Origin: Peronospora farinosa
Taxonomy: Eukaryota > Oomycota > Peronosporomycetes > Peronosporales > Peronosporaceae
Direction: 5' to 3'
DNA: 64,000 nt
Assembly (NCBI GenBank): GCA_947646735.1
Contig: CANTFK010000343.1
Location: 248,001 to 312,000, forward strand
Made by a program: the position numbers and the translations under genes. Below, piece after piece: positions 1 to 59,640 of the stretch (position 1 is its first letter; the number at the start of each line of letters is the position of its first letter). Below the pieces are notes generated by a model that did not search any database, had not been told where the DNA came from, and saw only the letters and a list, made by a program, of their open reading frames with translations.

Positions 1-122
1 ACACAAGGTGAGACCCAAGGCCAATACGACACGGTATTGGGGTACCCCCTCCGTAAGTCGGCAGTCCGGCGCTGTGTGTGTTTGTGGATCTCCTACGTTG
101 TTTGAGAATCCACTCCACCACA
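1..122 (+). repeat. 3' end of the G1 5' LTR
   Basis: This is 121/122 identical to 10340-10461 and ends CA at 121-122, directly before a primer-binding-like sequence. The start of the LTR lies left of the window. Confidence 0.85.
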
Positions 123-1958
123 ATGGTGCGCGTGCCCGGATCTTCGGGAGACGCGGGATTTCACCGTGAGTCCCACGAAGAAGAAAAGATAACGGTCAAG
201 ACAGACCAAGGGACGACCAAGACACTGGAAACCGGATCGCCAGTGATCAAGAAGGAAGAAGGATCGGAGGACCTGCAGAGCCCGGGGAGGAGCTCTACTA
301 TTGAGGTCAAGGTGGAATATGAAGAAAAACCACAAAATCCTCCCCCTTATGTCTTCGTGGAAGAAGACAATATGGGCCATAATAAATATTATGGTCCAGG
401 GGTCCCAAGTTTGACAGCGAAAGCTAAAAAACAAGGGACCCCGAAGCAAGTCTCCCAACCTACCACTCAAGAGCCAAAGGTGCCCAAGAACAAGCAAAAG
501 AAGCAGAAGCATACCAAGTTGAAGGCACCGAGAGGCGGAGACACGACGGACGAGTCGGGAGAGAGCCAAGGCGTGGCTAGTAAGGACTGGACAGAAGAAG
601 ATTTGGAAGAAGCCTACCATCGGAATAAATTGAAGAAGTTTCTCCGAAAGGACCCGGTGATGAAGGCGCTCAAGGTCAAGCTTATGGACCAGGTCCACGG
701 TCCGATAACGGCTCTTCCCACCACGACCACAGACCTGGAGGTCCTCAAGGCCGTAATGAATCTGCTACATGAAGCTGGGATGGATGCTGGGAACTTTACC
801 GCTGAGACCCTCTTTGATTTCGGGTTCGAGACCTTGAAGAAGACCTTAGTGACCCTGCATGGTCACCTCAAGACGTTAGTGGGGGAGTTCCCCCCGAAGG
901 AAGTACCCCGTCAAGATGGAGGAGTAGTGGATCCTGGTGTGGGCTCTCCTGCTGCGTCACTCGGTGAATCGTCACCAAGGTCTCAATATGAATCGGCCAC
1001 CTCATCTATGATGTCGGCCCTGATGGATACGGTGGACCGAATGCAACTGGGTCCAGCTGGTGCAGCGTTGTTAGAAGCACGAATTCGCGAAGCTGGCCAT
1101 GTGGACACAGCAACCCCATGGGTCCAGCGCCAAGCACAGGAGGAGACGGAAGCCCGGTGCAAAGTGGAGCCAAGGTTGATGGGGACAAAGACGGATCAGG
1201 AAGCAAAGACCGAGTCAGTTTCCCCTAGCGCACTCCAGTCGTACTTTGATAAGGCGATGACCAAGTTCCTTGAAGAGCAAGGCTCCACAAAAGTTGCAGT
1301 GGACAGGGGACACACCATGAAGGGTTAAGGACCAGTTCATCCCAGGTCCTCCCAGCGAGTTGAGCGCCTAGGACCACTAGGCGATATCCCTGATGTGGAC
1401 ATGGAATCTGTGGGGTCAACCCATGATGAATACGACCCAGATGACTTGGCGTTCACGATGACCTCAGCGCGAGCGACTGTGGCCGCGGCTACGGCAGGAG
1501 GACCCCCTACTGTTGTTCCACACATTAGGGTATCGGCCTCGTCGGATCTGAAGGAATTTGGCGGAAGGGACCACGATGAAGATCGTGCCAGAAGCTGGAG
1601 CACTAAGGTAAAGACGGCTTTCCTCCGAGACCAGGCACCAGACAGCGAGAAGTGTCTCATTTTTGGGTCCCTGCTCACGGGTCCAGCTCAGAATTGGTAT
1701 CGACAGCTAGGTCGAACGGTACGCGTCGATTGGAAGCTGCTTCTGCGAGAGTTCCAAGCACAATTTTGCGGCTTGGGGGTGTCGGTGGCCCGACAATATT
1801 ATCACGCCAGAAAGAGAGCCGATGAGTCACCCTTAGAATATTTGTACCGTTTGAACGTTGCAGGGCTCAGGGCCAAGCTAGATATTAAGGGTGGGCCCCC
1901 CAGTGTAAAGCGTAACACGTGGATCATTACGTGGAGACCTTGGATGATCGAGAATTAG
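123..1958 (+). pseudogene. G1 Gag, N-terminal and capsid part, interrupted
   Basis: One frame runs from the ATG at 123-125 (the frame is also open from 78 inside the LTR) to 1958, broken by a TAA at 1326-1328. The first part is a Lys/Glu-rich tail followed by a helical region around 600-900. After the stop, in the same frame, comes a retrotransposon Gag domain (about 1540-1905) with the usual pattern of an aromatic NWY after a short loop, a Trp-rich helix and an RQYYHARK-like helix. Around 1910 the frame shifts: the continuing Gag helix is read from 1919 in another frame. Either decay or assembly error could explain the breaks. Confidence 0.75.
124..140 (+). promoter_or_regulatory. Putative tRNA primer-binding site of G1
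   Basis: One base after the LTR end lies TGGTGCGCGTGCCCGGA. It begins TGG, as expected for pairing with a tRNA 3' CCA end. The tRNA species was not identified. The ATG at 123-125, in frame with the Gag-like ORF, overlaps it. Confidence 0.6.
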
Positions 1959-3781
1959 CGGACCAGCTTACATTGCTCAGACTTTCTGATGCAGATGACC
2001 TGGAGGAAGTCCTGCTGGCTCGTCAGAGAGCGAAGACGCGTCAAGGAAGGGTCTTGTTCGGGTCCAGCAAGTTTCGCCAGAAGGCCCCAACCACTCCAGA
2101 CCACACCAAGAGTCAGCTGAGGAGACCCGTCCAAGTCATCCGAGCCACTTCTGAAAGTGAAAATGACCAAGGGTCCAGCTCCAGTGGGTCTGAGGGAGAA
2201 GGTGACCTCAGAAGAATTTATGCGGCGGCGAGTAAGTCCTACACTGGCAGGGCGAGGAACGGAGATGACCCCCGGGATCATCAGGACCCAGACCCAGACC
2301 GAAGTCGACGCACGGCAGAGGGACCTGGACAAAAGGTGGTTCCAGGGGCACCCGCGACAAAGTGTGCCCATTGTGGGTCTAGGAAGCATGGGGATCTGGA
2401 CTGTTGGAAGCGGATCGTTTGAGAGTGCTGTGGAAGGAAGGGTCACCCAGCCGACCACTGCCTGTTTGTGTGTCGCGGTTGTGGCAAGGTTCATGACGTC
2501 GGCAAGTGCCCGATGGAAGAGTTCTACAATCTGATTCGACAGTGGTACAACCCGACCAAGCAAGCACGCAGGGCAGCTGCCCGAGGCGGCGGAGAAGATG
2601 TTAAATTAGAACGCTCGCCAGGTTTGAATCTGGTACGAGCCGAGCGTTCTAATTGTTGCATTTATGCATTTGTGGAGAAACACCCCGTGGAGAAGGTCAA
2701 TAAGTTGGATGAATTGATTGGAAATACATCGGGCTTTTGCATTAATTCTGTTGCTGCTGTGGCCAATGCATGTATACCTCACGTTTATTCCCGAGGGGAG
2801 ACTATGATGACATTGGATTTATTGCCGGGAGAGTCAAGAGGATACTGGAAACACCATGCCCCAGGAAAGTGGTTTAAGCAAGCCAAGGCCTCTGGGAAAG
2901 TTAACAATATTCGTGCGAATCTACTGTTTGATTCTGGTGCCGAGATATCTATTTTAGATATCGCCTTTGCTCGTAAGGCAGGCTGCCAGATTAACACAAG
3001 CGAAAAACAAGAGTGTGTGGGCATTGAAGAAGCAGTTTACACCACGGAAGGGAGAACGAAGATCAAGTTAACGTTGAATGGTGTCTTAGTATACTTTTTC
3101 GATGTGTGGGCCGGGTCCATGGCCGGCCAGGATGTGCTACTAGGAATGGACTTTAAGGTGCCAGCTGGAATTCGTTTGGACATGGCGGATGGAACTATTT
3201 GCTTGCCAGACGAAGTTCGAATCCAGCTGACAGGTCGCAAGACCTTGTATAGTGGCCATATTTCTGAGGTAAAATTGGGCCAGTACGTGAATTTACCTGC
3301 GACAAAATATGTCGAGGTTCCGCTGAAGAGGGTTACGTCGGACCAGTGGAGATTATGGATGACCCGTGGAGACAGATGGGTAACTACGATGACCCAAGGA
3401 CATGGACATCGCCAATTCTTGAGGGTCACCAATGTGAGTGACAAGGACCTGATCCTACACGAGGATACCAAGCTGGGCATTTGGCTGGCTGAGGACCGGG
3501 TTCCCCGGGCCCAAGGATTCGTGTCAGTTGGTTCTAGGAGGTACGCTGAATGGAAAAATCTAGCCTACCAAGCAACCACCGACGAGGAGGATGCAGAAAC
3601 CACTCAAGAAGAAGTGTACCAAGTTCCGATGGTCGAGAAACCTAAGTACACGACTCCACAGAAAATGTTGCTACGGACGGGGACCCAAGTGCCAGTGGTT
3701 AACGTGGTGCACGAGTCTGTTATGAGGGACCCTGAGTCATTACCCATCAGATCAGGATTCTGGAGGGGAGGCCCTCGATAG
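1919..3781 (+). pseudogene. G1 Gag zinc knuckles and aspartic protease, interrupted
   Basis: One frame from 1919 to 3781, broken by a TGA at 2420-2422. Before the stop is a CCHC knuckle (CAHCGSRKHGDLDC). The stop falls exactly where the first Cys of a second CX2CX4HX4C knuckle should be, and a third Cys-rich motif (CRGCGKVHDVGKC) follows. The aspartic protease active site is LLFDSGAEISILD at about 2922-2960, with the flanking strands of a retroviral-type protease. The frame closes at 3781; the downstream protease-to-RT linker is read in another frame from about 3745, implying an indel there. The knuckles bind the RNA genome and the protease processes the polyprotein in intact relatives. Confidence 0.75.
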
Positions 3782-3803
3782 AGGTCAACCAGCTGGAGCT
3801 AGC

Positions 3804-4280
3804 GTGGGCACGGAAGTCTCATCTAAGGATACGACCGATATGGAGAGGGTCCACCTAGATGGGGGTCCACCGGTTATCAAGGCTGAAGTAGGTACTTCCG
3901 ATGACCAGGTCTGTGTTCACGAGAGTGGAAACTTATGTGCCGAGGATATCGACAAAAATTGGTCTGTTATCCCTGAGGTCACCCCATCCACGAACGAAGT
4001 TATGTTGGAAGACATCCAGATCCCAGACCCCGGTGATACCCCAAAGGAGGAGGTAGACCGCCTCCGTCAGATTATATGGAGAAAACGACATTTGCTAATG
4101 GGAAAAGGTAACGCGTTACCACCAGCAGCCCGAGGAGCGGTGTGCGACATCGATGTGGGAAATGCACGGCCTATCGCCCAACGTGTACGGAAAGTGGCCC
4201 CTCAGTTCAGGGAGAAGCTGTCGGACCTAATCAAGGGCCTACTATCGTCTAAGATTATCCAGCATTCTACCTCACCATGA
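3804..4280 (+). pseudogene. G1 protease-RT linker and RT N-terminus
   Basis: This frame is open from about 3745 and covers the acidic linker and the start of the RT domain (the helix before the first RT strands). It ends at a TGA (4278-4280). The reading frame is the same as the downstream pol ORF, and translation through the stop gives the conserved SP-x-ASPIVIIVKKNG segment of gypsy RTs, in which the interrupted position is normally Trp. A single nonsense change therefore separates this piece from the rest of pol. Confidence 0.75.
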
Positions 4281-4292
4281 GCCAGCCCAATT

Positions 4293-6644
4293 GTGATCAT
4301 CGTCAAAAAGAATGGAGTGGATATAAGGTTGTGTATCGATTACCGGATGGTAAACGAGCTGAAACGCCTCATGGTGTACCCTATGCCTCTCGTAAACGAA
4401 TTGCTGGAATATTTGGACAAAGCCCTATGGTATTGCTCGCTGGACATGGCCAGTGGTTTTTGGGTATTCGGTATGACTGAGAGGGCTCGTTTGATTTCGG
4501 CATTTGTGACTCCGTTTGGATTGTTCAAGTGGAGAAGAATGTCGTTTGGACTAAAGAATGCGCCGCAGATCTATCAGCGGCTGTTGGATAATGCTTTATA
4601 TGGATTTCTTACGATTTCCTCAGAGCCGGGCTCTGACAAACCAGAGGATCTGTTCGAGGTAGGCCATCCAGAGGGAGACCTCAAGAAGTCTATATTAGGA
4701 CGTAGGTCCTATATCGACGACATTTTGGTGACCTCGGAGTCATGGGATGACTTATGCGTGAAAGTGGAACGACTTTTGGAGGTGTGTGACAAGTGGAACT
4801 TATCGATCAGCGCAGTTAAGAGCTCATGGGGCTGTCAAAAGGTAGATTACCTTGACCACCAAATGTCAGCGGAAGGGCTGGAGGCCCACCCTAAATACCT
4901 TCAGTCCTTGGTGGACTTACCGTTACCCACTACCCTGAAAGCTATGCAGTCGTTTCTCGGGAGTCTCAACTATTACAGTCGGTTCCTGGAGGAATATGCC
5001 ATTTATGCGTCCATCCTGTACGAACTGAGGGAAGTAGATTATCACGTATTACGAAACCGGATAAGCAGGACTGGGAACATACGGGGAGATGACCAGGAGG
5101 AGGACCGACGGGCCCGGGTGAAGGTGGCATTAACGTGTGGAAAGATTGAGATGAACTACGCTTTGGATGATGACGATCTTCTTCTGTACTGCCCTTACCA
5201 GGGAACAGTAGACGAGGACCGTGATGGGTTGATTCGGCTAGTTATACCCGAAAGTCTACAACAAGACTTTCTACACCACTACCATACGAGTCTAGAAGGG
5301 GGACACCAGGGAATTGGCCGTACATACCAACGGATCCGGAAACATTTCTATTGGAAAGGCTTATTCCGGAGTGTTCAGCGCTATGTTGGCACTTGCGTAG
5401 ACTGCGAGACTGGCAAAGGTGGCCCCACCTTACGAGGGAGAAGTCCAGGGAACATTCAAGCTACCCACCCGTTCCAAGTTATCGCGATGGACCATATCCC
5501 ATCTTTGCCCAAGTCGTTCAAGGGTAATACCGAGCTGTTGATTTGGGTGGACCTGTTTACGGGATATGTGATTGCCAAGGCTAGTTCGTCGAGGTCGGCC
5601 CAAACCGTGGCAGAAGGTTACGAAGAGTGCGTATTCCGTCGGTTTGGGTCCAGTGAGGCGATCCGTCACGACAGAGAACCCAGTTTCATGTCAGATTTCT
5701 TTCGTGCTTTCAACCGCATAATTGGGCAGAAACAGCGGGCGACTATGGCGTATCGACCACAGGCCAATGGCACAGCAGAGAGAATGGTACAGACCATTAC
5801 ACGGTCCATCAAAATGTATGTGTCCGAGGTAGATCAGAAGGACTGGGATGCCTATGCAGAAAGGCTCACTTTCGCGTTGAATACGGCCCAGGACCGGATC
5901 CGAAAGGAAACGCCATTTTTCTTGGTACATGGCTGGGATGCCCGAAGTACTCTAGAAGCCACCATACCGTTAGGCAGCACGAAGCGGCATGAATGTGAGC
6001 CCCGTCGATGGCGATATAGCGTACAACGTCAGTATCGCAGATCGAGGGAACAAGCCAACGAATTATTACGATCTGCGATGGAAAGTCGGGCCCAGGCCCA
6101 CAATGAGGAGGTGGTTGATGGTCATATTGAGGTAGAGTCCCAAGTCTGGTTATACTTGGACCGGGTCAAGGAGGGGTATGCTCGAAAGCTGGCACATCTA
6201 TGGCACGGGCCGTTCCGAGTGAGAGAATTGGTAGGTGACTATGCCGCTCGTTTAGATATCAGTGGAACAGACTACCGTATATACCCGTTGGTACACGTGT
6301 CAAAATTGAGGCTGGTCCGGCAATACCCGGATAGACCAGATACGGTGTTGGTGGTAGACGAAGCGAACCGGGTGGATTTTGATGAAGCTCTATTGCCAGA
6401 AGACAGTTGGGTCGCGGAACTGGAAGATGACGAATACGAAGTGGAGAAGATTCTAGACAGACTTATGGGAAGGAAAACTCGGTACGGACGGATCCAGTGT
6501 GAATACCTGGTACAATGGAAAGGATATCCTGACCCTTCATGGGTGGATGAGGTGGACCTCAACTGCGGGGGATTGCTTAGGGACTATGAGCGCAGGCAGG
6601 CTACTCGGAACCGATTCAAGGCAATGCAGAGTCATGAAGAGTAG
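4293..6644 (+). CDS. G1 Pol: RT, integrase and chromodomain, RNase H missing
   Basis: A 783-codon open frame. RT motifs are visible: LDMASGF, FGLKNAPQIYQ and the catalytic YIDD (about residue 139). The integrase follows with an HHCC zinc region (HHYHT...CVDCETG) and a D,D,E core (MDHIPSLPK, RHDREPSF, NGTAERM), then a GPF/Y-like stretch and a C-terminal chromodomain (EYLVQWKGYP, about 6508-6540) of the kind that targets chromovirus integration. The RNase H domain expected between RT and integrase (about 120 residues) is absent: the RT thumb runs straight into a short charged linker and the integrase zinc region. As drawn it starts after a stop codon, so it is a fragment of a dead polyprotein. 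Confidence 0.85.
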   Translation: MIIVKKNGVDIRLCIDYRMVNELKRLMVYPMPLVNELLEYLDKALWYCSLDMASGFWVFGMTERARLISAFVTPFGLFKWRRMSFGLKNAPQIYQRLLDNALYGFLTISSEPGSDKPEDLFEVGHPEGDLKKSILGRRSYIDDILVTSESWDDLCVKVERLLEVCDKWNLSISAVKSSWGCQKVDYLDHQMSAEGLEAHPKYLQSLVDLPLPTTLKAMQSFLGSLNYYSRFLEEYAIYASILYELREVDYHVLRNRISRTGNIRGDDQEEDRRARVKVALTCGKIEMNYALDDDDLLLYCPYQGTVDEDRDGLIRLVIPESLQQDFLHHYHTSLEGGHQGIGRTYQRIRKHFYWKGLFRSVQRYVGTCVDCETGKGGPTLRGRSPGNIQATHPFQVIAMDHIPSLPKSFKGNTELLIWVDLFTGYVIAKASSSRSAQTVAEGYEECVFRRFGSSEAIRHDREPSFMSDFFRAFNRIIGQKQRATMAYRPQANGTAERMVQTITRSIKMYVSEVDQKDWDAYAERLTFALNTAQDRIRKETPFFLVHGWDARSTLEATIPLGSTKRHECEPRRWRYSVQRQYRRSREQANELLRSAMESRAQAHNEEVVDGHIEVESQVWLYLDRVKEGYARKLAHLWHGPFRVRELVGDYAARLDISGTDYRIYPLVHVSKLRLVRQYPDRPDTVLVVDEANRVDFDEALLPEDSWVAELEDDEYEVEKILDRLMGRKTRYGRIQCEYLVQWKGYPDPSWVDEVDLNCGGLLRDYERRQATRNRFKAMQSHEE

Positions 6645-6783
6645 TGGGGAGAGTTCATCTTGGGAAGGCCAAGATGATGCAAGAAGGAGGCGGTATTTGT
6701 CATACATTTACAAGGGGGTCAAGTTATTATATTCGAGAGTGCGACAGCACAAAAGAGATTGCGAAGTATTGTAAAAGGCCCAG

Positions 6784-6834
6784 CGTATTAGGGCACCGGG
6801 GTACCGGGGCCCAGGGGCCCGGAGGTACAGGCCA
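6784..6834. repeat. Short GGGGCCC/GGTACC-rich repeat patch
   Basis: This is a small run of the same CCCAGGGG/GGTACAGG words that make up the larger minisatellite at about 9440-9735. The two patches bracket the opposite-strand ORF. Confidence 0.6.
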
Positions 6835-6895
6835 AAGAAAAGGAACGTGAAGTTAGGTAAAAGCGTTGGGGCAGAAAGCTAGCTGACTAAACATT

Positions 6896-9142
6896 TTATG
6901 CATCGGTGGCCGGGCAAAATTTGCCGGAGAGACGAGGGACCTGGAAGGCGGGGTGTTCCTTAATGTTCTTGCGATAGAACACGCGCCAGGGGTCAGTTTC
7001 GTCTGCGGTATGCAAAGCCCTCAACAAGTCCAACTGAGGATCCTCCGTGGTGACGATTGGGTACCAGACGGTCAGCTGACGGGTCGGGATCATGGGCTGG
7101 AAATAGGGGTCAAGAAGAATGTCGAGGTCACAGTGACCGGCCTTCATCCCTTCCAGGACCTTCTCAAGTATGTCCATCCAAGCCCTCACCGCCTTGGCCC
7201 GCCGTTTCTTCCTCGCATTGGACAGCCGAGAGGCGTATTGGCTCTTTGTACGGAGCTCGGAGAAAAGAGGAAGTCGGTGTCGGTCTTCCCATAGACTCTG
7301 GCGTGACGCATCGACGTACCATACATGGAGCTTCACGAGGTCACTGAACCAGCCGGACACTGGAAAAGAAATAGGGGTTACGGTCACGACCCCCTGGGCC
7401 CAAGGACAGGAGTCCATTAGAAGCTGAAGTTGAGAGTCCTTCATGAGTCCTTCGCTCCAGATTGGAGGACTTTGGGGCTTCTGGTTTTCAGAAGCACCCA
7501 CCCAAGATAGTGGAAGCGATACCTTGGACCAAAGATCCTCTGGCGTCAGCTGGGTGATAACGAGGGCCCCTACCTGGGAAATCGACCAGGGGGAAACATC
7601 TTCCGCGGCGAACGTGCTGGGTGTCGCATAACCAGGAAGGGAAGAGCCGTGGATGTTACGGTCGGGGAAAGCATCGTGAGTGGGACCCTGGCTGGCAGGA
7701 CCCTCAGGTGTTGGTACCAGACCCTTGCGGCTGGAACCCTTGGAGGATGGTGCTGGACCCTTGCCGCTGGAACCCTTGGATGGTGGTGCAGAACTCTTGC
7801 CACTGGAACCCTTGGGTGGTACTGGACCCTTGCCGCTGGAACCCTTGGAGGATGGTGCTGGACCTTTGCCGCTGGAACCCTTGGATGGTGGTGCAGAACT
7901 CTTGCCGCTGGAACCCTTGGGTGGTACTGGACCCTTGCCGCTGGAACCCTTGGGCGGTACTGGACCCTTGCCGGCGGGGCCCTTGCGGCGGGAACTTTTG
8001 GCTGGTGGCTTACGCTTAGCATGGCTAGACTCGTCACTCTCAGTTTCAGAGTCTGGTCCAAACATCTCCAAGAACTCGTCGGAGTACGTCGTTCGAGCTT
8101 TCTTGTTTTTGACGCCCGAGGGTGCGTGGGAAGTGCGAGGGGATGGGGGCCTTGAAGGTGGATTGGGAACTTTGGACTTGGCCTTAGTCGATAGGTCTAT
8201 GACCTCGGGGCCGACCTCTGACGTAGAGGGTACAGGGCCGGAGCGACGACTGGAATCCCGCGACCTGGCCATGGCGGCGAACATCGAGTCGTCGCTACTG
8301 CTATCCTCGGCCTCAGATGACCCCGGGGCACGATTGGTTTTTCGCTTCTTCGGCTTAAGGGGCGACCGAGCCTTGGATGAAGGCGAACGTGACCTTTTCG
8401 TCGTTCTGGAACTTCGGGCTTTGGTCGTGGCTGGGGTCGATTTTGCCGCCATGCCTCGAGCAACCGTTAGCTGCTTCTGCAGCTGGTCACGTTCCCGGAG
8501 GAGGGTCTTCACGCGGCTCTTGTAGTAGGCAACCTCCTTCTGGAGTACCAACACTTGCTTGGACAGTTCTTGAGGACTGCGAAGTGCGTCCAACTTGGAC
8601 TCTAGCGACCGAATTTCAGCCGAAGAATTTGCGACAGCCTCGTTGTACTGGTCCTTCCAGTACTTGATCTGGGATCGGGATTCTTCCACTTCCCGAGAAT
8701 TGTCCACCCGTTGGGCGAGTGCATCCCGGTACTCGGCGATGGCCAGCTGGTCCGCTTCATGCTCGTGGACCAGATTCCGGACCCAAGACTGTATACGGGG
8801 CGCATGGGTCACCTCGAATTCCGTGAGGTCATCTACGCGACGCTGTAATTCCGCGGTCCGGCGATGTTCCATCTGGTAGGCCCGTTGGAGGACTCTGTGT
8901 TCCTCAGCGAGGGTCTCCATAGCCTGGGCCCGCTCCACCGCGCCACGTATAACTTCCCAAGCTTGAGAGACCTCCAGATAATTGGGGGGATCCCCAATAA
9001 GGTCCACGGTCGGGGCGACCTCGTCAGGGTCAGGTCCAGGAGGTGCTGAAAAAGACCAACGGTCAGGTGCTTGAGACCCGGTGGAAAGATTACAAGAAGT
9101 TACTAACGGATACAAGACGTGTGAGTTGGTGAACGCAACCAC
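6896..9142 (-). CDS. Antisense ORF of G1: coiled-coil, Ser/Lys/Pro-repeat protein
   Basis: A continuous 748-codon frame on the strand opposite gag-pol, convergent with pol and 252 bp from its end. Residues about 50-235 form a long coiled coil. Then comes a basic SR/KPKK-rich stretch (about 236-275), an acidic Ser patch, a Pro/Ser region, and a degenerate repeat of 11-13 residues built on KGSSGKGPVPP and KGSSGKSSAPPS (about 390-490; DNA 7700-7990). The C-terminal 230 residues look globular, with many Trp and Tyr, an ARKKRR basic patch and a helix-rich end. I recognise no known family. It has no stop in 2.2 kb, while gag-pol on the other strand has several. Additional antisense ORFs in LTR elements are known from plants; a role in this element is inference. 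Upstream exons are possible. Confidence 0.6.
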   Translation of the reverse strand: MVAFTNSHVLYPLVTSCNLSTGSQAPDRWSFSAPPGPDPDEVAPTVDLIGDPPNYLEVSQAWEVIRGAVERAQAMETLAEEHRVLQRAYQMEHRRTAELQRRVDDLTEFEVTHAPRIQSWVRNLVHEHEADQLAIAEYRDALAQRVDNSREVEESRSQIKYWKDQYNEAVANSSAEIRSLESKLDALRSPQELSKQVLVLQKEVAYYKSRVKTLLRERDQLQKQLTVARGMAAKSTPATTKARSSRTTKRSRSPSSKARSPLKPKKRKTNRAPGSSEAEDSSSDDSMFAAMARSRDSSRRSGPVPSTSEVGPEVIDLSTKAKSKVPNPPSRPPSPRTSHAPSGVKNKKARTTYSDEFLEMFGPDSETESDESSHAKRKPPAKSSRRKGPAGKGPVPPKGSSGKGPVPPKGSSGKSSAPPSKGSSGKGPAPSSKGSSGKGPVPPKGSSGKSSAPPSKGSSGKGPAPSSKGSSRKGLVPTPEGPASQGPTHDAFPDRNIHGSSLPGYATPSTFAAEDVSPWSISQVGALVITQLTPEDLWSKVSLPLSWVGASENQKPQSPPIWSEGLMKDSQLQLLMDSCPWAQGVVTVTPISFPVSGWFSDLVKLHVWYVDASRQSLWEDRHRLPLFSELRTKSQYASRLSNARKKRRAKAVRAWMDILEKVLEGMKAGHCDLDILLDPYFQPMIPTRQLTVWYPIVTTEDPQLDLLRALHTADETDPWRVFYRKNIKEHPAFQVPRLSGKFCPATDA

Positions 9143-9428
9143 CCAAGCGACGTAGGATCACTTACTGTTAATTCGAGGAGTTTGGACAAGGGTGCACGTG
9201 GTCTTACCGCAGTTCGAAAGACCAGCGCGCACGGGACAGCTGTGGTGAAGTGCCAGGGAAAGTTGTAGTTTAAGGGAGATGGAACGAGAGCAAGAGAACT
9301 TCTGGTCACTTCCCCGAGGGAGTGACCACGACCCGGCCTCGCGGATTTACAACCACACACCAGGCTTCGCAGTATTAAGAATATAAGGGCCCATACGTGC
9401 GGAGTCAGCACAGGCCCCAGGTCCCGGA

Positions 9429-9737
9429 AACAGGTTCCGGGGACCCAGGAGCCCAGGGGCCCAGAGGTACAGGGGCCCAGGGGCCGGGGGCCCAGGGGTA
9501 TAGGTACCAGAGGCCCAGGGGCCCAGGGGCACAGGGACCCAGGGGCCCGAAGGCCCAGGGGTACAGGGACCCAGGGGCCCAGGGGTACAGGGGCCCAGGG
9601 GTACAGAGGCCCAGGGGCCCAGGGGTACAGAGGCCCAGGGGTACAGAGGCCCAGGGGACCAGGGGTACAGGGGCTCAGGGGTACAGAGGCCCAGGGGCCC
9701 AGGGGTACAGGGGCCCAAGGACCCAGGGCCCAAGGGC
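9429..9737. repeat. GC-rich minisatellite of GGGGCCCA / GGGGTACAG units
   Basis: About 300 bp of tandem 12-bp-like words (CCAGGGGCCCAGG, CCAGGGGTACAGAGG) in variable order. It is open in several frames on both strands, giving spurious collagen-like or Pro-Leu-Gly ORFs. It lies between the start of the antisense ORF and the 3' LTR. Confidence 0.85.
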
Positions 9738-10008
9738 CTAATGTCCGAGGGTGCAGAATCGGTACACAGAATATCGTAGATTACAGAAAGTACAGGTACC
9801 AAGAAGCCAGTTCTTCCTCCAAGAGTCGACACGTGGCACTATCCAGATCAAAGGGTTAGGGTTAGACAAGAAAAGCATACAAAGTATAAGGTAAATAAAC
9901 ACACTCAAATTTGCTTTACACGTGGCAGCTCCGAACGCCTCCTCTTAGCTTCTACGTCGCTGCACCTCTTCCGGGCGGGATATCTTTTGGCCCCCCGACG
10001 TCAGCAGG

Positions 10009-10461
10009 TGTTAGACGGCTTAAGCTACGCAAGTTGAACCTCAGGATAGTTGGCCTGAGGTGTCAAGCATAAGTGTCAAAACACCCAACACCCGCTACAG
10101 GAAGCGGTTTCCCTACGGGGAACAAGAGAAAGGGGTCCAAGGACCAAGAAAGAGTTAGACACCGAAAGGGGTACGTAGTACCAGGTGTATCGCTCTCGAC
10201 TAAGTCGATTGAGCTCAAGAAACCCGGTCCCAAGTGAAGTATATCAACTCGGGGACCACCAAGTCCAAGTCCTATACAAAGACCAAGTCTTTGAGTCTTC
10301 TGCGTCAACCGAGGAGCAAGACCAGCCAAGCCGACGGGTACACAAGGTGAGACCCAAGGCCAATACGACACGGTATTGGGGTACCCCCTCCGTAAGTCGG
10401 CAGTCCGGCGCTGTGTGTGTTTGTGGATCTCCTACGTTGTTTGAAAATCCACTCCACCACA
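10009..10461 (+). repeat. G1 3' LTR (start uncertain)
   Basis: The last 122 bp (10340-10461) match the 5' LTR end. A possible start is TGTTAG at 10009, which would give 453 bp with TG...CA ends, but no convincing polypurine tract precedes it, so only the 10340-10461 part is firm. Confidence 0.6.
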
Positions 10462-11498
10462 CCAGTGCTATTGACGATGACACTATAGTGTTGTCAACAG
10501 CGTCGACCCATGAACGACCTCTTGGAGGCGTCATAGGCGAGCTGGATGCTAAAAGCGTGCGCGGAGCTCAGCGCTTTGTGGATGAGCGATTAGCCATCAC
10601 ACGTAAAGTCCGTGACGCGATGGCAAGCGCACAGGACAAGCAAAAACAATATGCAGACCAGCATGGTCGCAAAAACAATGAACACTTTAATTTGGGGACA
10701 AAGTGCTATCAAGTACTGCTACCCTACCTAAACATGCAATTTCTGTACTATCTGGTGGTACTACTAAGCTATTGCCCCGATTCATTGGGCCCCTTACAGT
10801 GGTTGAAGAAGTTGGAGACCTAAATTATAGGCTCACTCTCCCACCGTATATGAAGACGCACCCCGTATTTTACGTGGGTCGTCTGAAACGGTATGTTGAC
10901 CAGAAGAGATCACATATCCACATCGGTCTAACGAGACCGATGGTGACGTCGACTGTGAGTCGAGCGTCGCGGCCGATCAGGCGAAGAGGAAGCCGAAAGG
11001 CTCCCCGTATACGAACGAGGAGATAGAGGACTCGGCGATCGAGGAGGACTCCGCACTTGACGCGGGTCTCTCATCACCAGTCGCTCTAAGATGTCCAAAC
11101 GGGTCTTCAGGCGGTCATACCCCTGACGGTCCCTCGTCCTCACATCGCGCAGATCCGAGTTCAGTCGCGAGACTTGACTCTCGAGATCTGTCACCTGCCT
11201 CTTCAGCGCAGCGGACTCAGCCTGCGACTGAACATCAGCAGGGTAGGCAGCCGCGAGAAGGTGGGCGTAATCGCCACTCCTATCGGGAGCCACCTGTGTT
11301 GGTGGACACGGAAGGGAATACGCGCTTCATTGTTGGAAGGCTGTTGGCCCACCGGTTTGTGAAGCCCAAATCCTTGTCCAGTGGAAGGGTTACCCAACGA
11401 GCTTTGACTCGTGGGAGCCTGTGGACGCTTTGCGCGTCGACGTGCCTGGGATGGTGGCTGCTTATGTGAAGCAGCACCAGCTGTCTTCTTTCTGCTAG
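10462..11498 (+). pseudogene. G2 integrase C-terminus and chromodomain
   Basis: Coding remains: an integrase tail with the SKxQYADxHGRKNNEHF motif (10540-10690), then in another frame a GPF/Y segment (RFIGPLTVVEEVGDLNYRL, about 10780-10840) and HPVFYVGRLKRYV (10862-10900). A Ser/Pro-rich linker leads to a chromodomain read with VQWKGYP and SFDSWEP (about 11380-11425), ending at TAG 11496-11498. At least one frame change near 10700-10780 shows it is not intact. The near-identical stretch at 63630-63962 supports the reading. Confidence 0.75.
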
Positions 11499-14106: not shown

Positions 14107-16571
14107 CTACGGCACTCCTACCGATAAATTCCCCGTTTCCATAACGATGACTAGCTTCTTTCGTTTTTCTTCTGCGGGCTGGAAAACCCAATCGACACGA
14201 CCACTTCGGCAATCGATCTTGACGCAGCCGACTTCATCACGGTCCCACTTCTTTTCAAAGGTTGCTAGTTTCGCGCAGAAAACCAATGCGACTACCCACT
14301 TCTCCTTCCACACGGTCTCTAGCTCACCAATAATAGTACTCATCACACCAGAGTCCACACTTTTGTCCCAATACTTGCACTCGCACAGAAAAAGTGGCGG
14401 TTTGGAACGGTCTTCCATGTTGCATACAAAAACTTCACATCTGTGACCATTCCAGCACGAACGAGATGTCCGAAGTTACAGCCTTCAGCGCGAGTATCTA
14501 GGATACATTGCGGCCACTCAGCATTCGGTGGAGCTAAAAAGGGAATCTTCGAGCGAGACAAAGCCGCCAAATCAGCGTATGTGTTCAATAAATCGCTAGC
14601 AACAATCGTTTTCCCCGTATTACCATCAGTCATCGTCACTGGCCGTATCTCGTCTTGACATTCACTGAGCAATCCAGCGAAGAAGTCATCAAAAGGAATG
14701 CCTTGCACTCCATTCCGCCGCGAAGCACAGAAAAACATATTAGCGACCATGTTATCGAACGTCTTATAATCATTGCTCAACGCATTTGTGTTTACTCCTG
14801 TCGTGACCCCCTTTCCTTTCAAGCACGCTGAGAAGATGCCAAGTGTTGAGTGGTCGATAGACAGTTGACGATCATAGTAACCCGAGTAAGTCTTGCTACC
14901 CAATATCGCAAGATAAAGCAGCAAGTCCTCCTCGATTGCCGGAAAACAATACAACGGTTCCCACGGCATGCTATTAACCTTGAGGCTACCGATTATATCC
15001 ACTTCAGTTGCCTGATCAACCGCTAGGTTGGCGAAGTGTAAATCCATACAGAGAGCCCCCATTTTTTGTGCAACTTTCCTTTTCTCATATGGGGGCGGGG
15101 ACGTATCACCAGTACCAGCATTAATGTACGATATCGCCATCAGCTGCGCATCCTTTCCCTCCTGTTTCTCCATAAAAGAGTTGTTGCTTTGTGTCTCGGA
15201 GCTTACGCGATCAAATGCTACGTCCAGCAAATCGCAAAGCTTAATACCATTAGCAGAATTTTTCATCGCGTATTTCACCGCGCTGTCGACGAAATACCTA
15301 GCAAAACGCCCGCGAGAATTCACAACAATCCTGTTCAAGATGGGATACTGTGCTTGTAGGTAATTCCAAGCACTCTCTTTGTCTTTATCTGCATACGGAA
15401 TTGGTTGATATGGAGGAAAACGAGAAAAAATCGTCATCCATGCATGCCTTCCACAATAGCTTCCTAGCGGCGGCTTGCTAATCATTTTGGTGATCTTATC
15501 GTCTGACCCCATCAAAACCACAACCAGAGCACACACACGAAAAACATTGCGCTGGAATGCCGCCAGTTTCTTCCCTCCTCCATCGACGTGTGTGTTGAGC
15601 GTCATTTCGTCCAACACAAAGAAAGGCAAGACCTTTCCCTCAGCCTTCATCTTTTCGCGAAAAGCGACGACTTTCTCGCGATTGCACTTCTCCACGTGCA
15701 ATGTCGCTTCCTCTTGAAAGCGTATCATTTGTCCTTGCTGATTTTTCTCTTTACTGCAATACTTCAGCAATGCATAAATAAAACCAAAGGTCCACAAACT
15801 CTCAGTATTGTAAAATAGTGACGTGCGGTCCAAAATATCCTCCTCACACCGTTTCGTTGGGTCATCCTTGTTTGTCACTTCAAGAAACGCTTCTGAAATT
15901 GACGAGAAATTTCTATACAAGCGCTGAGAAAAGGGTCCAATGGCAACAGGCCAGTAAAAACACGGGCGGTTTCCTCCCAAAGCAAACGCCAGCTGAGACT
16001 TTCCCATGCCAGATGATCCTTCCATGCAAATGAACGGCAGCCCAAACCAGCCAGAGAGGGCATACAGTGCGTCAATTTTGCTTAAAATCTGCTGGCAGTA
16101 ATTTTCACAGTTGCGCTGTATCAGCTCCCCTCGTTGCCGGTAATGCAACAGCTCGTCCGTGTAATCGGCATTGTCGTCAACTTCTTTGACGCGTAAGAAG
16201 ACATAATCCTTTGGTACCACCACCATCACGTGGATTTGTTCTGTCGATGGCTGCAACATCTTGTTATCGTCAAACAGCCAACGCTTCAAGGTCCTCGTTG
16301 CATTCGCTTGCTTTCCATCAATCACCTGCTGGATATGTGGATGCGTCTTCCCTTCAGATAACGCTTGCGCAGCAGGATCGTTTTCTTTCAGCCACGCGCC
16401 GTCCGTCATCTTCGCCAGGAAGAGACGCAGCTTACGCGCGGGAATTTCAAGGTCTTTGTTCTGTGCCTTGATTGCGCCTATTAAGTCAGCTACCTGGTCG
16501 TCATCGTCTAGTCGCACCGAGAGCGCACTGCCACCCGCACCAACAATCGCGCACAACAGTTTTACCATCAT
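14107..16571 (-). CDS. Crinkler (CRN) effector, frameshifted near the C-terminus
   Basis: CRN proteins are oomycete intracellular effectors that act in host cells, usually in the nucleus. The N-terminus starts MVKLLCAIVG (ATG at 16568; another ATG one codon upstream), has the LFLAK translocation signature at residues 50-54 and closes the DWL-type domain with HVMVVVP at 114-120 (the classic motif is HVLVVVP). A P-loop GSSGMGKS (185-192) and a Walker B-like FFVLDE (317-322) mark a NTPase module. The main frame ends at 14343 after 742 codons. Its last 40 residues or so look like out-of-frame reading, because an overlapping frame (about 14455-14107) encodes a nuclease-like tail with an ECKYW motif typical of CRN REase-fold domains. 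A one-base indel near 14450-14460, or a sequence error, would explain this. A shorter fragment of the same gene is at 49.0-49.58 kb. Confidence 0.85.
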
Positions 16572-20200: not shown

Positions 20201-23200
20201 CTAACCTAGGCTGATCATCTCACACAGCGCCGCGAGCTTGACTGCATCTAGCGCCTTCGTCAAAAGATCCGCTAGTTGTTGCTCCGAGCGGACGTACTGC
20301 GACACGATGATCCCGCGTCGAGCGAAGTCGCACACGAACTTCGTGCGAACATCGATGTGCTTGGCCTTTAGAGATGACGCCTCGCCTGCCAGCTGCTTCA
20401 GTGCCGCCTGATTGTCGACGTGGAGTACCATCGGTAGCGCCGGCGGCTTACCGATCTCGGTTAGCATCTCCCTGATACCAAGAAGCTCGCGCGCCTGCTC
20501 CGATGCAGCGACGAACTCCGCTTCCATCGTCGAGAGCGAGACGCCGCCTTGCTTCTTCGACGTCCAGCTGACCGGCATGCCGTTCAGGCGGATGATGCCG
20601 CCAGTCAAGGACTTTCTGTCACTCTTTTCCGCCGCAAAATCGGCGTCCGAGTACGCCTCGAGCTGGATCTTGCCGTCGAGGTGCTTCGCTGGTTCCATCC
20701 GAAGCTTGTAGTCCCGCGTCCCCTTCAGGTACCGCGCGATGCGTTTGGCAAGCTTCATATCGTGGAGTCGCGGCTGATGAGTCTGACGCGTCGCCTTGTG
20801 CACGGCGAACGCAATGTCCGGCCGTGTGCAACGCGCGATCCACAGAAGACTGCCGACGAGGGACTGGAACGTCTTGATTGTTGGCGCCTTCTGCACCTTA
20901 GTCTCGGTGAGCAGCGCGCTGTCATCTGGTAGCACGTCGTAGCAGTCAGCCCCAATTGGTGCTTTCGTCGGGTTTGCATCCTCGAGCCCATGCTCACGCA
21001 GGAGCTCGCCGATCGCCTCGGCCTGGTCAAGCACGTAGCCGCCACTGTTATCAATCGTGACACGCATGCCGAGGAACTTGCTAACGGTGCCGAGGTCCTT
21101 GATCGACAAGCTGCCGAGCTTGACGAAGAATCGGTCGACGGCTGCAGCGTCCGTGCCGGTAGCAAGTAGATCGTCGACGTAGACGCCCACGATGACCAAC
21201 TGTCCACCCTCGACTTGGTAGTATAGACACATGTCGGAAATACATTGCCGGAAGCCGGCTTCGAGCAGTCGAGCGTGCAGGAGCTGGCTCCAGAGTCGGC
21301 CAGCCTGCTTGAGGCCGTACAGGCTCTTTCGTAGCTGCAGCACTACTTCCTTCTTTGTCGCTGCGCCTACCATCTTGAGCGCGTCTTGATCGATTGTCAT
21401 TGCCTGCGGCACCTGGAGTAGTATTTCCAAGTGCGCTTCCTTGTCAGCCTTGACATACGCGTTGGGGATGTCGCCATGCTTTGCTGGGACACCCCATATC
21501 GCCGCAAGCGCCAAGATCACTTTCACGGTCGACATGTCCATGACAGCCGCAAATGTAAGCTGGTAGTCGACCCCAAAAACTTGCTCGTTGCCGCAGGCGA
21601 CCAGTCGAGCCTTCAAGCGCTCTATCTCACCGTGCGCGTCGGTCTTGGTCTTGAAAACCCACTTCGTGTGCAGAGTGTTGCTGCCCGGAGGTCGCTTGAT
21701 CAAGCGCCACACGCCATTGTCTTCTAGGGCTTGGAGCTCTTCGCGCATGGCCTTTTCCCAGCCTTCACGCTTAGTGCTGCGTAGCGCTTCACCGTAGTTC
21801 TTGGGATCGCACTCATACACATGAGCCACCACGCTGTCGTCGCCAGCTGGCTCCTCCTGATGGGCGGCCGCATGTGCGCGTTTGGTAGCGCCGCGCGTCC
21901 GGTGAGCCGCGCGTGTCCACGACTTCGATTTCTTCTTGCCGCTGCGTATCGTCGGCGATGCGGCATCGTCAGCAGCCGGCAACTCTTTGCTTGTTGTTGC
22001 TGTTGCCGCTGGCTCCACGGCTTGATCTTCATACTCGAGCGCGCGCTGCAGCTGACCATTCTGCTCTGCGCTGAGCGTCTCGACGTTGCGCACATGCTGC
22101 GTGATCGTGACCTTGTTCTCCTTTTGGAGGAAGACGCGAAAGCCCTTAGTCTCGTCGCTCCGCCCAATGATCACGCCGACTTGTGCGCGCTGCGCGAGTG
22201 AGTTCTTGCCTGGGTCACGGTAGACCGAGCAGATAGAGCCAAAGGCGACGATGTCGCGCAGATCCGGCACTTGCTTCGTCAGTACCTCGATCGGCGACGC
22301 GCGCTTCGCATTCGCGCTCGTTGGGCTGCGGTTGAGGATGTACGCCGCGTACTCAACCGCATCGCCCCAAAACGTCAATGGCAGTCGGCTGGCAAAGATC
22401 ATGCTGCGCGCCATGTTCAGGATCGTCCTGTGCATGCGCTCGGCCTTGCCGTTTGACGCCTGATTCCTCGCCTCGCTGATCTGCCGCGCGACGCCCGTTC
22501 GCTTGCAGAAGAGGTCTACATTCGCGTATTCGCCGCCGCCATCAGTGCGTAGCACGTGGATCCGGCAGTCGAACTGGCGCTCAAAGAACGCGAGGAAGTG
22601 CTCAAACTTCTTGGCCGCCTTGTCCTTTGTAGGCGCCAGGAAGACGCGACAGTAGTTCGACTTATGATCGACAAAGTTGACAAGGTAACGATTGTGCAAT
22701 CGATCCTTCGGGGTCATCGGACCCTTGAGGTCTGAGCAGATCACCCCGCCAACTCTGTCGATCGGCGAGTTTGATCCAGTGTCCTTCTTCGACTGCACGT
22801 TCCTTGTTTGCTTGCCCTGTGCGCAAGAGATGCACGTCGGGCGCTTGCGAACCGTTAGCACGATGCCGGACGCGGGGTCTCTCGCCATGCGCTCGACGGT
22901 GTCGTACGCGAGATGCCCAAGCCTTTGGTGGAAGTGCAGCAGCGAGCCGCTTTGCGTGTCCGACTCGGGTTCTTCCGGAGCTGCCTGGCTCGTCAGGATC
23001 GCCATGAGCGCGTCTCTAGGCGCTCGTCGCTCGCGAGCCGCTGCAACTGTCTGGACGTAGAGCACATTGTGGTCCATCGCCACATCGAACGCGACTTGGC
23101 CATTGCTGCGTCGTGCCAACACGCGCGACTCGCCGTCGTAGACGAGCCCAAAACCCTTGATCTCGAGCTTACCGTAGGACATGATGTTGCGCGATAACTC

Positions 23201-24919
23201 GGGCGCCAGATACACGTCCGTCAGCGTCACATCTTGCTGCTGTCCTCTCGCGAGCACAGTCAGCACGACGCTTCCGACTTGCGTTAACTTGATGGTCTCC
23301 CCATCTGCCAAGTGGCACTCTTGATCGCAGTCCCTCGCGTCGCGCAGCAGGGTTGCGTCGTTCACAAGGTGGCGGCTGGAACCGCTATCGAGTATCCAGT
23401 CGTCATCTTCGTCATCGCTGTCGTCACCAATCGCCATCGCCAGGCTTTGACCGGTGGCGCGCGAGCCGTTGCGACCTCTTCCTTCACCAACAGCTAGCGT
23501 GATGCTGCCGCCGTCTTTTGGGCCTCTGCCCCTCTTCTTGTCGTCATTCTTCTTGCTGCGACAGTCCTTCTTTAGATGGCCGACCTTCCCACACCCGTGG
23601 CAAGTGCGTGTCTCCTTGCGCGACACGGACTCGTCCACGTGCGCGACGACCTCCTTCCCGAAGGATCTTCCTGATCTAGCTTCCATCTCGATTGCTTGCG
23701 CGAAGTGCGCGAGCTCTTCCGCGTGCACGAGGTAGTCGGTGCGGTGCGTCTGGTACTTCGCCATGAGTATTGTAGACAGCTCAGACGAGGCGTAGCGCAC
23801 GATGTTGTCCAGAACCTGCTGCTCAGCGCCGCCCGCAGCGTCGCTGACAGCGACCAGATACAAGTAGTGTTCTGGCCAGGATCTCTTGCTTTCTTTCTTC
23901 GCCGTGAAGAGTTTCATCGCTTGAGCGGCGGTTATCGTCGTCTTGAACGTGTCCAGCATGCGCTGCATCACGTACTGCAATGTAGGCAGCACGGCCCACC
24001 ACGTGTCGACCTGCTTGCTGAAATACCGCTCGGCAGTGCCAGTGAGGTACTGCCCGAGCACGTCAGTCTTCACATTCTCGCTCCACAGGAAACCGCAAGA
24101 CTCCTGTGCCATGTCGACCTGGCGCCAAAACGTCTTGCCCCAGTCGAAGAAGCCGGACCCGAGTCCAACGTACACCTCAGTGCCATCGAACTTGCGGATC
24201 GCCAGCTTGCGCTGCCTGGCATCCGGAGTGCGATACTGCATCGGCATTACTTGTTGCTGCTGCTGCTGTACTGGCTGCCCTGGAGCTGCCGGCATCGTCT
24301 GAGGCACTGGTGCCGGCTGGTATGGTGGCAATGGGGCAGGCGGCTGAGGCAACGGATCAGCACGCTGCTGCAGCTGCTCTCTCGCTCGCATCCGTAGGTC
24401 TTCGAGCCGCGCTGGTGCACGCCGCAATTGCTGCTGAGACTGCCGATCGTGCAAGTCCTCAAGCTCCATTGCGCCGCCGTGGAGTCGCCCTGCGAAGTCC
24501 GCCCCGAGCTCTGATCGGAACAGCTCGCTCTCGTGAGCGCCACGCATGCGCTCGTCTTCGTCCATGCGTGCTTGGGATGCTTCTATCTTCTGCATTCGCA
24601 AGTCCATGCCCGTGAGCATCTTGAGGACCCTCTCCAGTGCGTCAGGCTCCGGGCTCCTTGCGTGAGCGGTAGGAGAGACGACCGTAGCAGGCGCGGCCGC
24701 GGCCCTTTCGTGACCGGTTGCCGGCGGCGCCTGTGCCGCGTTGGTGTCGTCGTTTGCTTCCCGTCTTGGGCTCATAACCTGTTCGCTTGCCATGATGCAA
24801 GCTGTAGAGAGGAAGTCGGCGGCACTGTGATAAAAGGATTCTGACATTGTTATTAGTGTTATCTTTTTCGTGCTAGCATGATGGACTAGTTGTTCTTGTT
24901 CTCCATCACTCTTGTCCAA
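20201..24919 (-). CDS. Copia Gag-Pol polyprotein
   Basis: One frame of 1572 codons; the likely start is an ATG at 24793 (MASEQ, inside the LTR) or 24775 (MSPRR, in the primer site), so about 1524-1530 residues. In order: Gln-rich Gag; CCHC knuckle [14 protein letters not shown] (about 440); protease [11 protein letters not shown] (about 508); integrase with HHCC (HQRLGH...CISCAQGK) and DDE core ([24 protein letters not shown]) at about 660-830; RT (GDIPNAYV, then YVDDLL near 1250); RNase H ([28 protein letters not shown]) to the end. The PR-IN-RT-RH order defines Ty1/copia. It ends TAG at 20201-20203. All catalytic motifs I can read are intact. Confidence 0.95.
24768..24779 (-). promoter_or_regulatory. 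Copia primer-binding site matching initiator tRNA-Met anticodon arm
   Basis: Directly after the 5' LTR the minus strand reads GGTTATGAGCCC. Its complement GGGCTCATAACC is the anticodon stem-loop of eukaryotic initiator tRNA-Met (as in yeast), not a tRNA 3' end. Drosophila copia and yeast Ty5 prime from half-tRNA-iMet in this way. Confidence 0.75.
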
Positions 24920-34677: not shown

Positions 34678-34869
34678 AGGAATACAACTTGGTGTATTTG
34701 AATTAAATTGTACCAAGTGGGCAAAAAGTGAACTCACGACGTGGTAATTTAAAAAAAAACGGAATGGGTGCAGTTTTTTGTGACCTGTTATTGTATGTAT
34801 ACCTGCTGTATACACAGTACAGATACCGGTATTTTTACCTTGACTGGACCGGAGCAAAAGTATAGAGTG

Positions 34870-58675: not shown

Positions 58676-59640
58676 ACCTGGTAGCACTTCGTGGTCCGTT
58701 CACGACCATCGATCCTATTGCTATGGAACCAGCGAATGAGGAACGGCATAACGCAACGCGTGATGGATTTGGCCTTTTGAGTGATATCGAATGGCAGGCG
58801 GTATAGCTATTGCTGAAACTCTCGGCGAAGCCGCCGTCGGTGCCATGCTGCTCTTTCAAAGTAAAGACAAGTGTGGTGAAGTAAGCTCTTATAACTGTGT
58901 GACGAGACCCCAAACCACTTCCTATACGTACTGTCGACTTTCAAAGGAGGTTCCCCGATGCCTCGTATGGACCTTCTCTCACATCTGCAGTCTTAGAAAA
59001 ACTTGGGTGCGGATGTAGATGTCTGCCTTGAAAGGGGTATTTTTGGGGGGTCTCGAGTGAGTATGCTTCACTCGGTGGGCCAGTAGGTGGCCACTCGATC
59101 GATCTAGTCGATAGTGCACTTAGTCGATAGTGTGCTAAATCTTCAAGGAACTTGTCACTAGCCTTTCCTTGGTAGTCGCAGGGGTGTTAATCTCCTGGAC
59201 TTTACTTTGCTCCCAAACCGTCAGGTGAGGGAGGCCGCTTCCGATTGCGGATCTTTGGAGGGTGCTACTCGAGATGAATCCACAGGCCAAATAAATTCTG
59301 GTGTTCTTTTTGCACTTGATTCTAGCCGCACTAAACGGGGACGAAATGTATCCCTTCCCCGGAACAGATGGGCTGATCGAAACAAGTTCCTTTAAGCGTG
59401 ACGAAGTCGTGCCACGTAGTTTGCAAATTAATTGATATTTAATTATGGGGCCTATCTTTTAACGCCTCTACTTTATTCTTGCCTATAGCCTTGATTTATT
59501 GTGCTTAATGGCCAGGAGTAGTTCGATCTCGAGGGATCGATATCTACCGATGAAGGACCCGGCGCACGGTGCTAGTCTCCATGGCTATGCATGTGTGCTT
59601 GAATCCGAGCTTGACTAGCCGCCCGTAGGTTCTAGCTCAG
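58676..59640. other. Intergenic sequence without a supported gene
   Basis: No recognisable coding. The sequence TAGTCGATAGTG is repeated around 59107-59140. It grades into gypsy debris to the right. Confidence 0.5.

What the first reader, a model, noticed from the sequence alone, without database searches (positions are those of the whole stretch)
6896..9142. Intact 748-codon antisense ORF inside a dead gypsy element
The strand opposite gag-pol, between pol and the 3' LTR, carries an uninterrupted ORF with clear protein architecture: coiled coil, basic SR/KPKK stretch, GSSGK repeats and a globular Trp-rich C-terminus. Gag-pol on the sense strand has three in-frame stops, two frameshifts and a lost RNase H, so an unbroken 2.2-kb frame suggests selection, late acquisition, or expression independent of transposition. 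Antisense extra ORFs are described in plant LTR elements; I recognise no relative of this one. It could act on chromatin, element RNA or Gag.
Basis: partly seen in the sequence, partly recalled or inferred. Interest (0 to 1): 0.78.

Follow-up and report, generated by a model that had tools for sequence, protein, structure and literature searches.

The report
Antisense gene of an oomycete retrotransposon
A jumping-gene family in a downy-mildew-like organism carries, on its opposite strand, a real and old extra protein gene for which no relative was found elsewhere, echoing antisense genes that plant jumping genes also carry.

Summary
The open frame is real. Coding probably starts at the ATG at 8920, not the GTG at 9142: 674 codons (8920-6896, minus strand), between pol and a 3' LTR at 9241-10461. 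Relatives show the element is Chronos-like (Ty3/gypsy, dual RNase H, integrase, chromodomain); the window copy lost the RNase H stretch. The same antisense gene occurs in at least five diverged groups in this genome (32-59% identical pairwise in the C-terminal domain). 67 of 85 scored integrase-chromodomain hits have it, antisense, just downstream. Between groups A and B synonymous sites are saturated while dN/dS is 0.2-0.27, and the true frame alone has no stops, so the family was under purifying selection. The window copy itself shows none: an unbroken frame is expected in about 12% of such copies. The protein has no hydrophobic segment, a basic/Ser-Arg middle, group-specific repeats and a conserved, predicted helical C-terminal domain without a convincing match in the libraries searched. 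It belongs to the known class of antisense additional ORFs (plant Grande, RIRE2, Retand; fungal Boty) as a new protein family. Most likely a nuclear accessory factor: inferred. Some elements with long open pol frames have lost it. Expression is untested.

The parts
6896..8920 (-). antisense accessory gene (aORF), 674 codons from ATG to stop
   Evidence: open frame; searches place the start; purifying selection between groups A and B
8921..9142 (-). open but probably non-coding leader between GTG 9142 and the ATG
   Evidence: no codon periodicity over codons 2-47, pN/pS 0.73 with bootstrap interval 0.47-1.19, C-run length varies; codons 48-74 undecided
6899..7645 (-). conserved C-terminal domain (codons 500-748)
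   Evidence: aligned in groups A-E with invariant SF, GW, LW, RKxRR and DLDIxLDPxF columns; helical model, core block means of pLDDT 69-92
7676..7957 (-). group-specific GSSGK repeat array (33-36 base spacing)
   Evidence: groups B and D have other repeats in the middle of the protein
8342..8398 (-). basic nuclear-localisation-like stretch
   Evidence: motif scan; nuclear role not tested
8243..8308 (-). acidic/Ser stretch followed by AAM-SR-RR motif, present in groups A-D
   Evidence: pattern found in 4 of 4 full proteins scanned; the pattern was written after seeing these proteins
6645..6895 (.). gap between the two convergent genes (pol stop ends 6644, aORF stop 6896-6898); its first about 56 bases, with an inverted repeat, are alike in groups A and B
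4293..6644 (+). pol piece: RT, then H2C2, integrase, chromodomain; dual RNase H deleted at about 5124-5131
   Evidence: Pfam; deletion; junction shared with one further place on the same contig
78..4280 (+). broken gag-protease-RT frames
   Evidence: 95.9% alike to a group B element over 1-3874
1..122 (+). end of the 5' LTR (the rest lies before the window: L040 274-1301)
9241..10461 (+). 3' LTR (TG...CA), with a GC-rich tandem repeat at about 9452-9768; repeat CCAG at 10462-10465 as before the 5' LTR

Best explanation
The frame is an accessory protein gene of Chronos-like Ty3/gypsy retrotransposons of a downy-mildew-like oomycete, carried antisense between the chromodomain end of pol and the 3' LTR. 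Shown: it is old, shared by at least five groups, and was kept by purifying selection in the lineages that gave rise to the groups; the window copy is a decaying member. Inferred: a minus-strand transcript starts in or just before the 3' LTR (whose edge is 320 bases from the ATG) and makes a basic nuclear protein without membrane segment. A coiled coil would join it to itself, the basic/Ser-Arg middle would take it to the nucleus and to nucleic acid or chromatin, and the helical C-terminal domain would bind a conserved partner. The most likely job is a nuclear step next to the integrase-chromodomain (targeting, pre-integration complex) or regulation of the element's own RNA, and it can probably act in trans.
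For: Groups A x B: dS saturated in both genes (medians 1.77 and 1.75 for the two aORF parts, 1.56 pol) with omega 0.27 (N-part), 0.205 (C-part), 0.049 (pol). Six-frame control: only the true frame has no stop, omega 0.19-0.20. Five groups share the C-terminal domain, 32-59% identical pairwise, with more than half of the four-fold sites changed in 10 of 10 pairs. 67 of 85 scored integrase-chromodomain hits have an antisense aORF hit within 3 kb downstream, median gap 278 bases (from tables). Dual RNase H, integrase and chromodomain in a relative. No hydrophobic stretch (0 windows at 1.6 or more in 4 of 4 proteins); KR-rich motifs and the AA-SR-RR motif in 4 of 4 (pattern written after seeing them). 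Integrase-chromodomain and aORF diverge together between A and B, whereas gag-RT and the outer LTR are nearly alike.
Against: No transcript, protein or localisation evidence. Of 18 integrase-chromodomain hits without a listed aORF, 6 were fetched; in 5 the C-terminal domain is gone (two keep an N-terminal part, two only the leader, one nothing), and two of those (L056, L059) sit beside pol frames open over more than 1,900 codons, so the gene is not needed in cis for every recent insertion. Within group A frame breaks are nearly as frequent as in pol, and single A pairs reach omega 1.8. One opposite-strand frame that shares third positions also has low omega (0.26-0.37) but 9-12 stops. The net charge is not basic in one of four proteins (group C, -4, open frame counted without a chosen start). 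The domain model is of medium quality (mean pLDDT 64) with no trusted fold match, so partner and activity are guesses.
Confidence: 0.45

Rival explanations
1. Antisense RNA is the functional product: convergent transcription makes double-stranded RNA that limits or tunes the element, and the protein is incidental.
For: pol and aORF are convergent with stops 251 bases apart; such a role is proposed for plant antisense ORFs (PMC7264820, parts 1-2 of 3 read).
Against: Selection acts on codons: omega about 0.2 and no stops in the true frame between groups with saturated synonymous sites.
Confidence: 0.12
2. The protein acts against host silencing or limits its own element's copy number (suppressor or self-restriction factor) rather than helping integration.
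For: Faster amino-acid change than pol (omega 0.2-0.27 against 0.05), group-specific repeats and loss from some elements with long open pol frames fit a factor in conflict or acting in trans.
Against: No Pfam domain beyond weak matches; a strongly conserved DLDIxLDP core argues for a stable partner.
Confidence: 0.2
3. A structural or envelope-like protein of the particle.
For: Coiled coil and helical domain could assemble.
Against: Opposite strand to gag-pol; no hydrophobic segment in 4 of 4 proteins; no similarity to Gag or Env families in Pfam.
Confidence: 0.06
4. A host gene captured late and carried along without function, or a chance open frame.
For: The window copy shows no selection of its own (4 synonymous, 6 non-synonymous private changes); some elements have lost the gene.
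Against: Present in five groups; 674 codons against 326 at most in 500 shuffles; omega 0.2. I did not look for a copy outside the element in a systematic way: the neighbourhood was read only for the fetched loci and for the 67 paired hits.
Confidence: 0.03

Closest known systems
Chronos Ty3/gypsy elements of oomycetes (PMC5348765: section 5 read, other passages searched)
   Same: Host group; tandem Ty3/gypsy-type and archaeal-type RNase H domains, integrase, chromodomain at the end of pol in a relative.
   Different: The section and passages I saw describe no antisense gene ('antisense' occurs 0 times in the main text); the window copy has lost both RNase H domains.
Antisense additional ORFs (aORF-3R) of plant LTR elements: Grande gene23, RIRE2, Retand, PvRetro13 (PMC7264820, parts 1-2 of 3 read; PMC11963269, passages seen)
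   Same: Position between pol and 3' LTR, opposite strand, present in most copies, tandem repeats near by in Retand, nuclear localisation reported for Grande and suspected here.
   Different: No TRP28 domain or other Pfam family beyond weak matches; host is an oomycete; pol ends in a chromodomain, whereas Retand is a non-chromovirus lineage.
Boty of Botrytis cinerea (named in PMC7264820)
   Same: Antisense ORF between pol and 3' LTR outside plants.
   Different: Not compared here by sequence.
Antisense genes of deltaretroviruses such as HBZ (as described in PMC11963269 passages)
   Same: Antisense gene of a retroelement whose protein is nuclear; that HTLV has an antisense promoter in the 3' LTR is from PMC7264820 part 2.
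   Different: No sequence relation tested; analogy only.

Membership tests
Chronos LTR retrotransposons | dual RNase H (Ty3/gypsy RNH followed by archaeal-type RNH) | tested here: met
   Met in a group B relative: PF17917/PF17919 and PF13456 in L012 (that PF13456 stands for the archaeal type is my reading); the same stretch, partly broken, is seen by eye in L018, L019, L024 and L028. Not met in the window copy, where about 1.2 kb is deleted.
Chronos LTR retrotransposons | chromodomain after integrase at the end of pol | tested here: met
   PF00665 at 391-489 and PF00385 at 715-768 of the window pol piece.
Chronos LTR retrotransposons | RT branch of Chronos in a Ty3/gypsy tree | not tested
   No tree made; no Chronos reference sequence was compared.
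Chronos LTR retrotransposons | host in Peronosporales/Pythiales | tested here: met
   By relatives only: a pol relative 98% identical over 60% of the query is from Peronospora effusa, and most named hits among the 120 listed of 429 are Phytophthora; Crinkler domain protein in the window. The genome itself is unnamed.
antisense additional ORF between pol and 3' LTR (aORF-3R) | antisense to gag-pol, between pol and 3' LTR | tested here: met
   aORF 6896-8920 minus; pol stop at 6644; 3' LTR from 9241.
antisense additional ORF between pol and 3' LTR (aORF-3R) | in most copies of the family, conserved as a protein | tested here: met
   67 of 85 scored hits; omega 0.2-0.27.
antisense additional ORF between pol and 3' LTR (aORF-3R) | transcribed from its own promoter | not testable with these tools
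   No RNA data.
Retand TRP28 antisense ORF | TRP28 domain (PF04195) | tested here: not met
   Not among Pfam matches of the window protein, of three group B-D proteins or of 23 of 23 domain sequences at E 0.1. The genome search for PF04195 was uninformative, its controls being silent.
env-like additional ORF | same strand as pol, with a membrane-spanning segment | tested here: not met
   Opposite strand; no 19-residue window at 1.6 or more in 4 of 4 proteins.

The most novel reading that the evidence does not exclude
Oomycete Chronos elements and plant Tat elements have independently arrived at the same three-part design (a second, archaeal-type RNase H next to the old one, a long pol-to-3' LTR region, and an antisense nuclear protein), so the antisense protein serves a step that elements with this design need; in Chronos it would be an unknown chromatin or nucleic-acid binding fold that works with the integrase-chromodomain.
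Probability: 0.25. Interest if true: 0.78.

Novelty: new variant of a known kind. Interest (0 to 1): 0.58.

Why it matters
Antisense genes between pol and the 3' LTR are an unsolved feature of plant elements: conserved, of unknown function. A deep, selected example in oomycetes, in elements that share the dual RNase H with plant Tat elements (that Retand, Grande and RIRE2 belong to Tat is recalled), gives an independent case to compare, and a conserved domain small enough to solve. No relative was found among about 5.8 billion predicted proteins (only candidates sharing short words are scored), although the pol of the same element has 429; this suggests, without proof, that annotation of such genomes leaves the gene out.

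Tried and rejected

Dropped before counts: repeat codons 375-495 (A) and 330-500 (B) in the private/shared count and 375-495 in the A-A aORF omega; the B-B omega kept its repeats. Codons with stops were left out of omega. Omega and break counts rest on the window and the 20 loci only. Of the 18 integrase-chromodomain hits without a listed aORF, 6 were fetched and 12 not looked at. A first reading with C-terminal queries called L058 and L061 empty; a check with whole-protein queries found leader pieces there, an N-terminal D-type part of about 500 residues in L056 and 469 in L060, and nothing in L059.

Full report
What is there. The minus-strand frame 9142-6896 is open for 748 codons from a GTG. 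Three things put the likely coding start at the ATG at 8920. Between the window and a group B copy (L009) the differences in codons 2-47 are spread 15/14/15 over the three codon positions, while from codon 75 on they pile up on position 3 (for example 18/11/30). The pN/pS of that leader is 0.73 with a bootstrap interval of 0.47-1.19. A C-run upstream of the ATG has 6, 7 or 8 C among nine near-identical group B copies. Codons 48-74 stay undecided (7/7/14). From the ATG the frame has 674 codons; 500 shuffles gave at most 326.

The element. The 3' LTR spans 9241-10461 and the 5' LTR ends at window base 122; the pair is flanked by CCAG on both sides. The two LTRs differ by 42 mismatches in a 1226-column alignment that also holds gaps, so the insertion is not fresh. 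Pfam finds RT, H2C2, integrase and chromodomain in the pol piece 4293-6644. A group B relative carries two RNase H domains before the integrase, the Ty3/gypsy one and PF13456, which with the chromodomain is the build of Chronos elements (PMC5348765, section 5 read); that PF13456 stands for the archaeal type here is my reading. The window copy lacks about 1.2 kb holding both; of 40 matches to the 141-base junction query, only the window and one other place on the same contig match across it. I made no RT tree, so 'Chronos-like' is the safe word. The pol query from a group B copy is 98% identical over 60% of its length to a Peronospora effusa protein, and the window holds a Crinkler-domain protein, so the genome is from a downy-mildew-like oomycete.

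The gene is a family. An own-genome search with the window protein gave 89 matches in two groups (A, window-like; B, about half identical). A weak match inside a fetched locus led to group C, then D and a further E-type set. Counts are lower bounds, since only top candidates are scored. In the C-terminal domain five representatives are 32-59% identical pairwise, and 23 aligned sequences share invariant columns including SF, GW, LW, RKxRR and DLDIxLDPxF. Of 85 integrase-chromodomain hits scored, 67 have an aORF hit on the opposite strand within 3 kb downstream, median gap 278 bases. Of the other 18, six were fetched: one has an E-type aORF with a frame break, two keep only an N-terminal D-type part, two only a leader, one nothing; the other 12 were not looked at.

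Selection. Between groups A and B the synonymous sites are saturated in both genes (median dS 1.77 and 1.75 for the two aORF parts, 1.56 for pol) and omega is 0.27, 0.205 and 0.049. In a six-frame control the true frame alone has no stop codon and has omega 0.19-0.20; the one other low frame (0.26-0.37) is the opposite-strand frame that shares its third positions, and it has 9-12 stops. Within groups the signal is weaker, as expected for copies that decay after insertion: A-A median omega 0.47 (range 0.29-1.80) against 0.59 for pol, B-B 0.55 against 0.28. Private changes give 0.40 (A) and 0.55 (B), shared ones 0.31 and 0.33; for pol 0.49 and 0.41 private, 0.22 and 0.03 shared; the leader, as a rough neutral yardstick, gives 0.63 and 0.88 on few changes. 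The window copy has 4 synonymous and 6 non-synonymous private changes, so nothing shows selection on it since insertion. Breaks per kb: A aORF 1.03 (25 in 24.4 kb), A pol 1.36 (24 in 17.6 kb), B aORF 0.155 (3 in 19.4 kb), B pol 0.585 (8 in 13.7 kb) (9 of the 25 are stops in one copy, L027). Loci were picked by their aORF match, which favours the aORF.

Mosaic build. Window 1-3874 is 95.9% identical to a group B element, 5124-6700 only 80.4%. Per 60-base block against L009 the aORF is 37-77% identical, the first 160 or so bases of the LTR 53-73%, the repeat part 63-82%, and the rest of the LTR (9761-10420) 85-98%; L016 is alike, while the third B copy (L012) aligns poorly beyond about 10120, probably because its longer repeats push the LTR end out of the fetched stretch. 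Groups A and B thus share gag-RT and the outer LTR, while integrase-chromodomain, aORF and the LTR edge nearest to it stay diverged together, with alike dS in the two genes. This fits template switching and suggests, without proving, that these parts move as one cassette.

What it most likely does. Position, selection, lack of membrane segments and basic motifs point to a nuclear accessory protein made from a minus-strand transcript that starts near or in the 3' LTR. Its link to the integrase-chromodomain suggests help with chromatin targeting or nuclear steps; regulation of the element's RNA or of host silencing is the main rival. Elements with long open pol frames but a damaged or missing aORF (L056 beside a 1,937-codon and L059 beside a 1,906-codon open frame) show that it can be supplied in trans or is not always needed.

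Compared with what is known. [quoted passage not shown] In Retand 97% of clusters have an antisense ORF with a TRP28 domain (PMC11963269, passages). This gene fits the class by position and conservation but shows none of the described domains. Plant Tat elements and Chronos are described as having gained the second RNase H independently (PMC10508981, passages); an antisense gene in both would be a further parallel. The listings of my paper searches showed no earlier report of it in oomycetes.

Noticed in passing
window 5124-5131 and G000:C90:177338-177478: A precise loss of both RNase H domains at a short direct overlap is shared by two places on one contig, so an RNase H-less copy either spread or was duplicated.
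   Followed up: partly
window 1-5131, 9241-10461 against L041/L012, L009, L016: Groups A and B are mosaics: gag-RT and the outer LTR nearly alike, integrase-chromodomain-aORF diverged to synonymous saturation.
   Followed up: partly
window 6645-6700: A short stretch after the pol stop with an inverted repeat (CTTGG...CCAAG) is 90-93% alike in groups A and B while the next 60 bases are below 50%; the group C and D copies printed lack it by eye.
   Followed up: partly
L058 717-1748 plus: A 344-codon open frame antisense to pol with no match to the aORF queries, near a Chronos copy that has lost its aORF body.
   Followed up: no
window 20201-24847 minus: A Ty1/copia-like polyprotein in one open frame of 1548 codons (RVT_2, rve).
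   Followed up: no
window 14343-16571 minus: Protein with a Crinkler N-terminal domain (PF20147), described only.
   Followed up: no
window 59569-60541 minus: A second, about 31-43% identical integrase-type remnant of a gypsy element.
   Followed up: no
window 31966-34929 minus: Guanylate-binding-protein-like GTPase with a PH domain.
   Followed up: no
G000 contig C6, 404089-439672: Three group B antisense genes lie within 36 kb, suggesting nested or tandem insertions.
   Followed up: no
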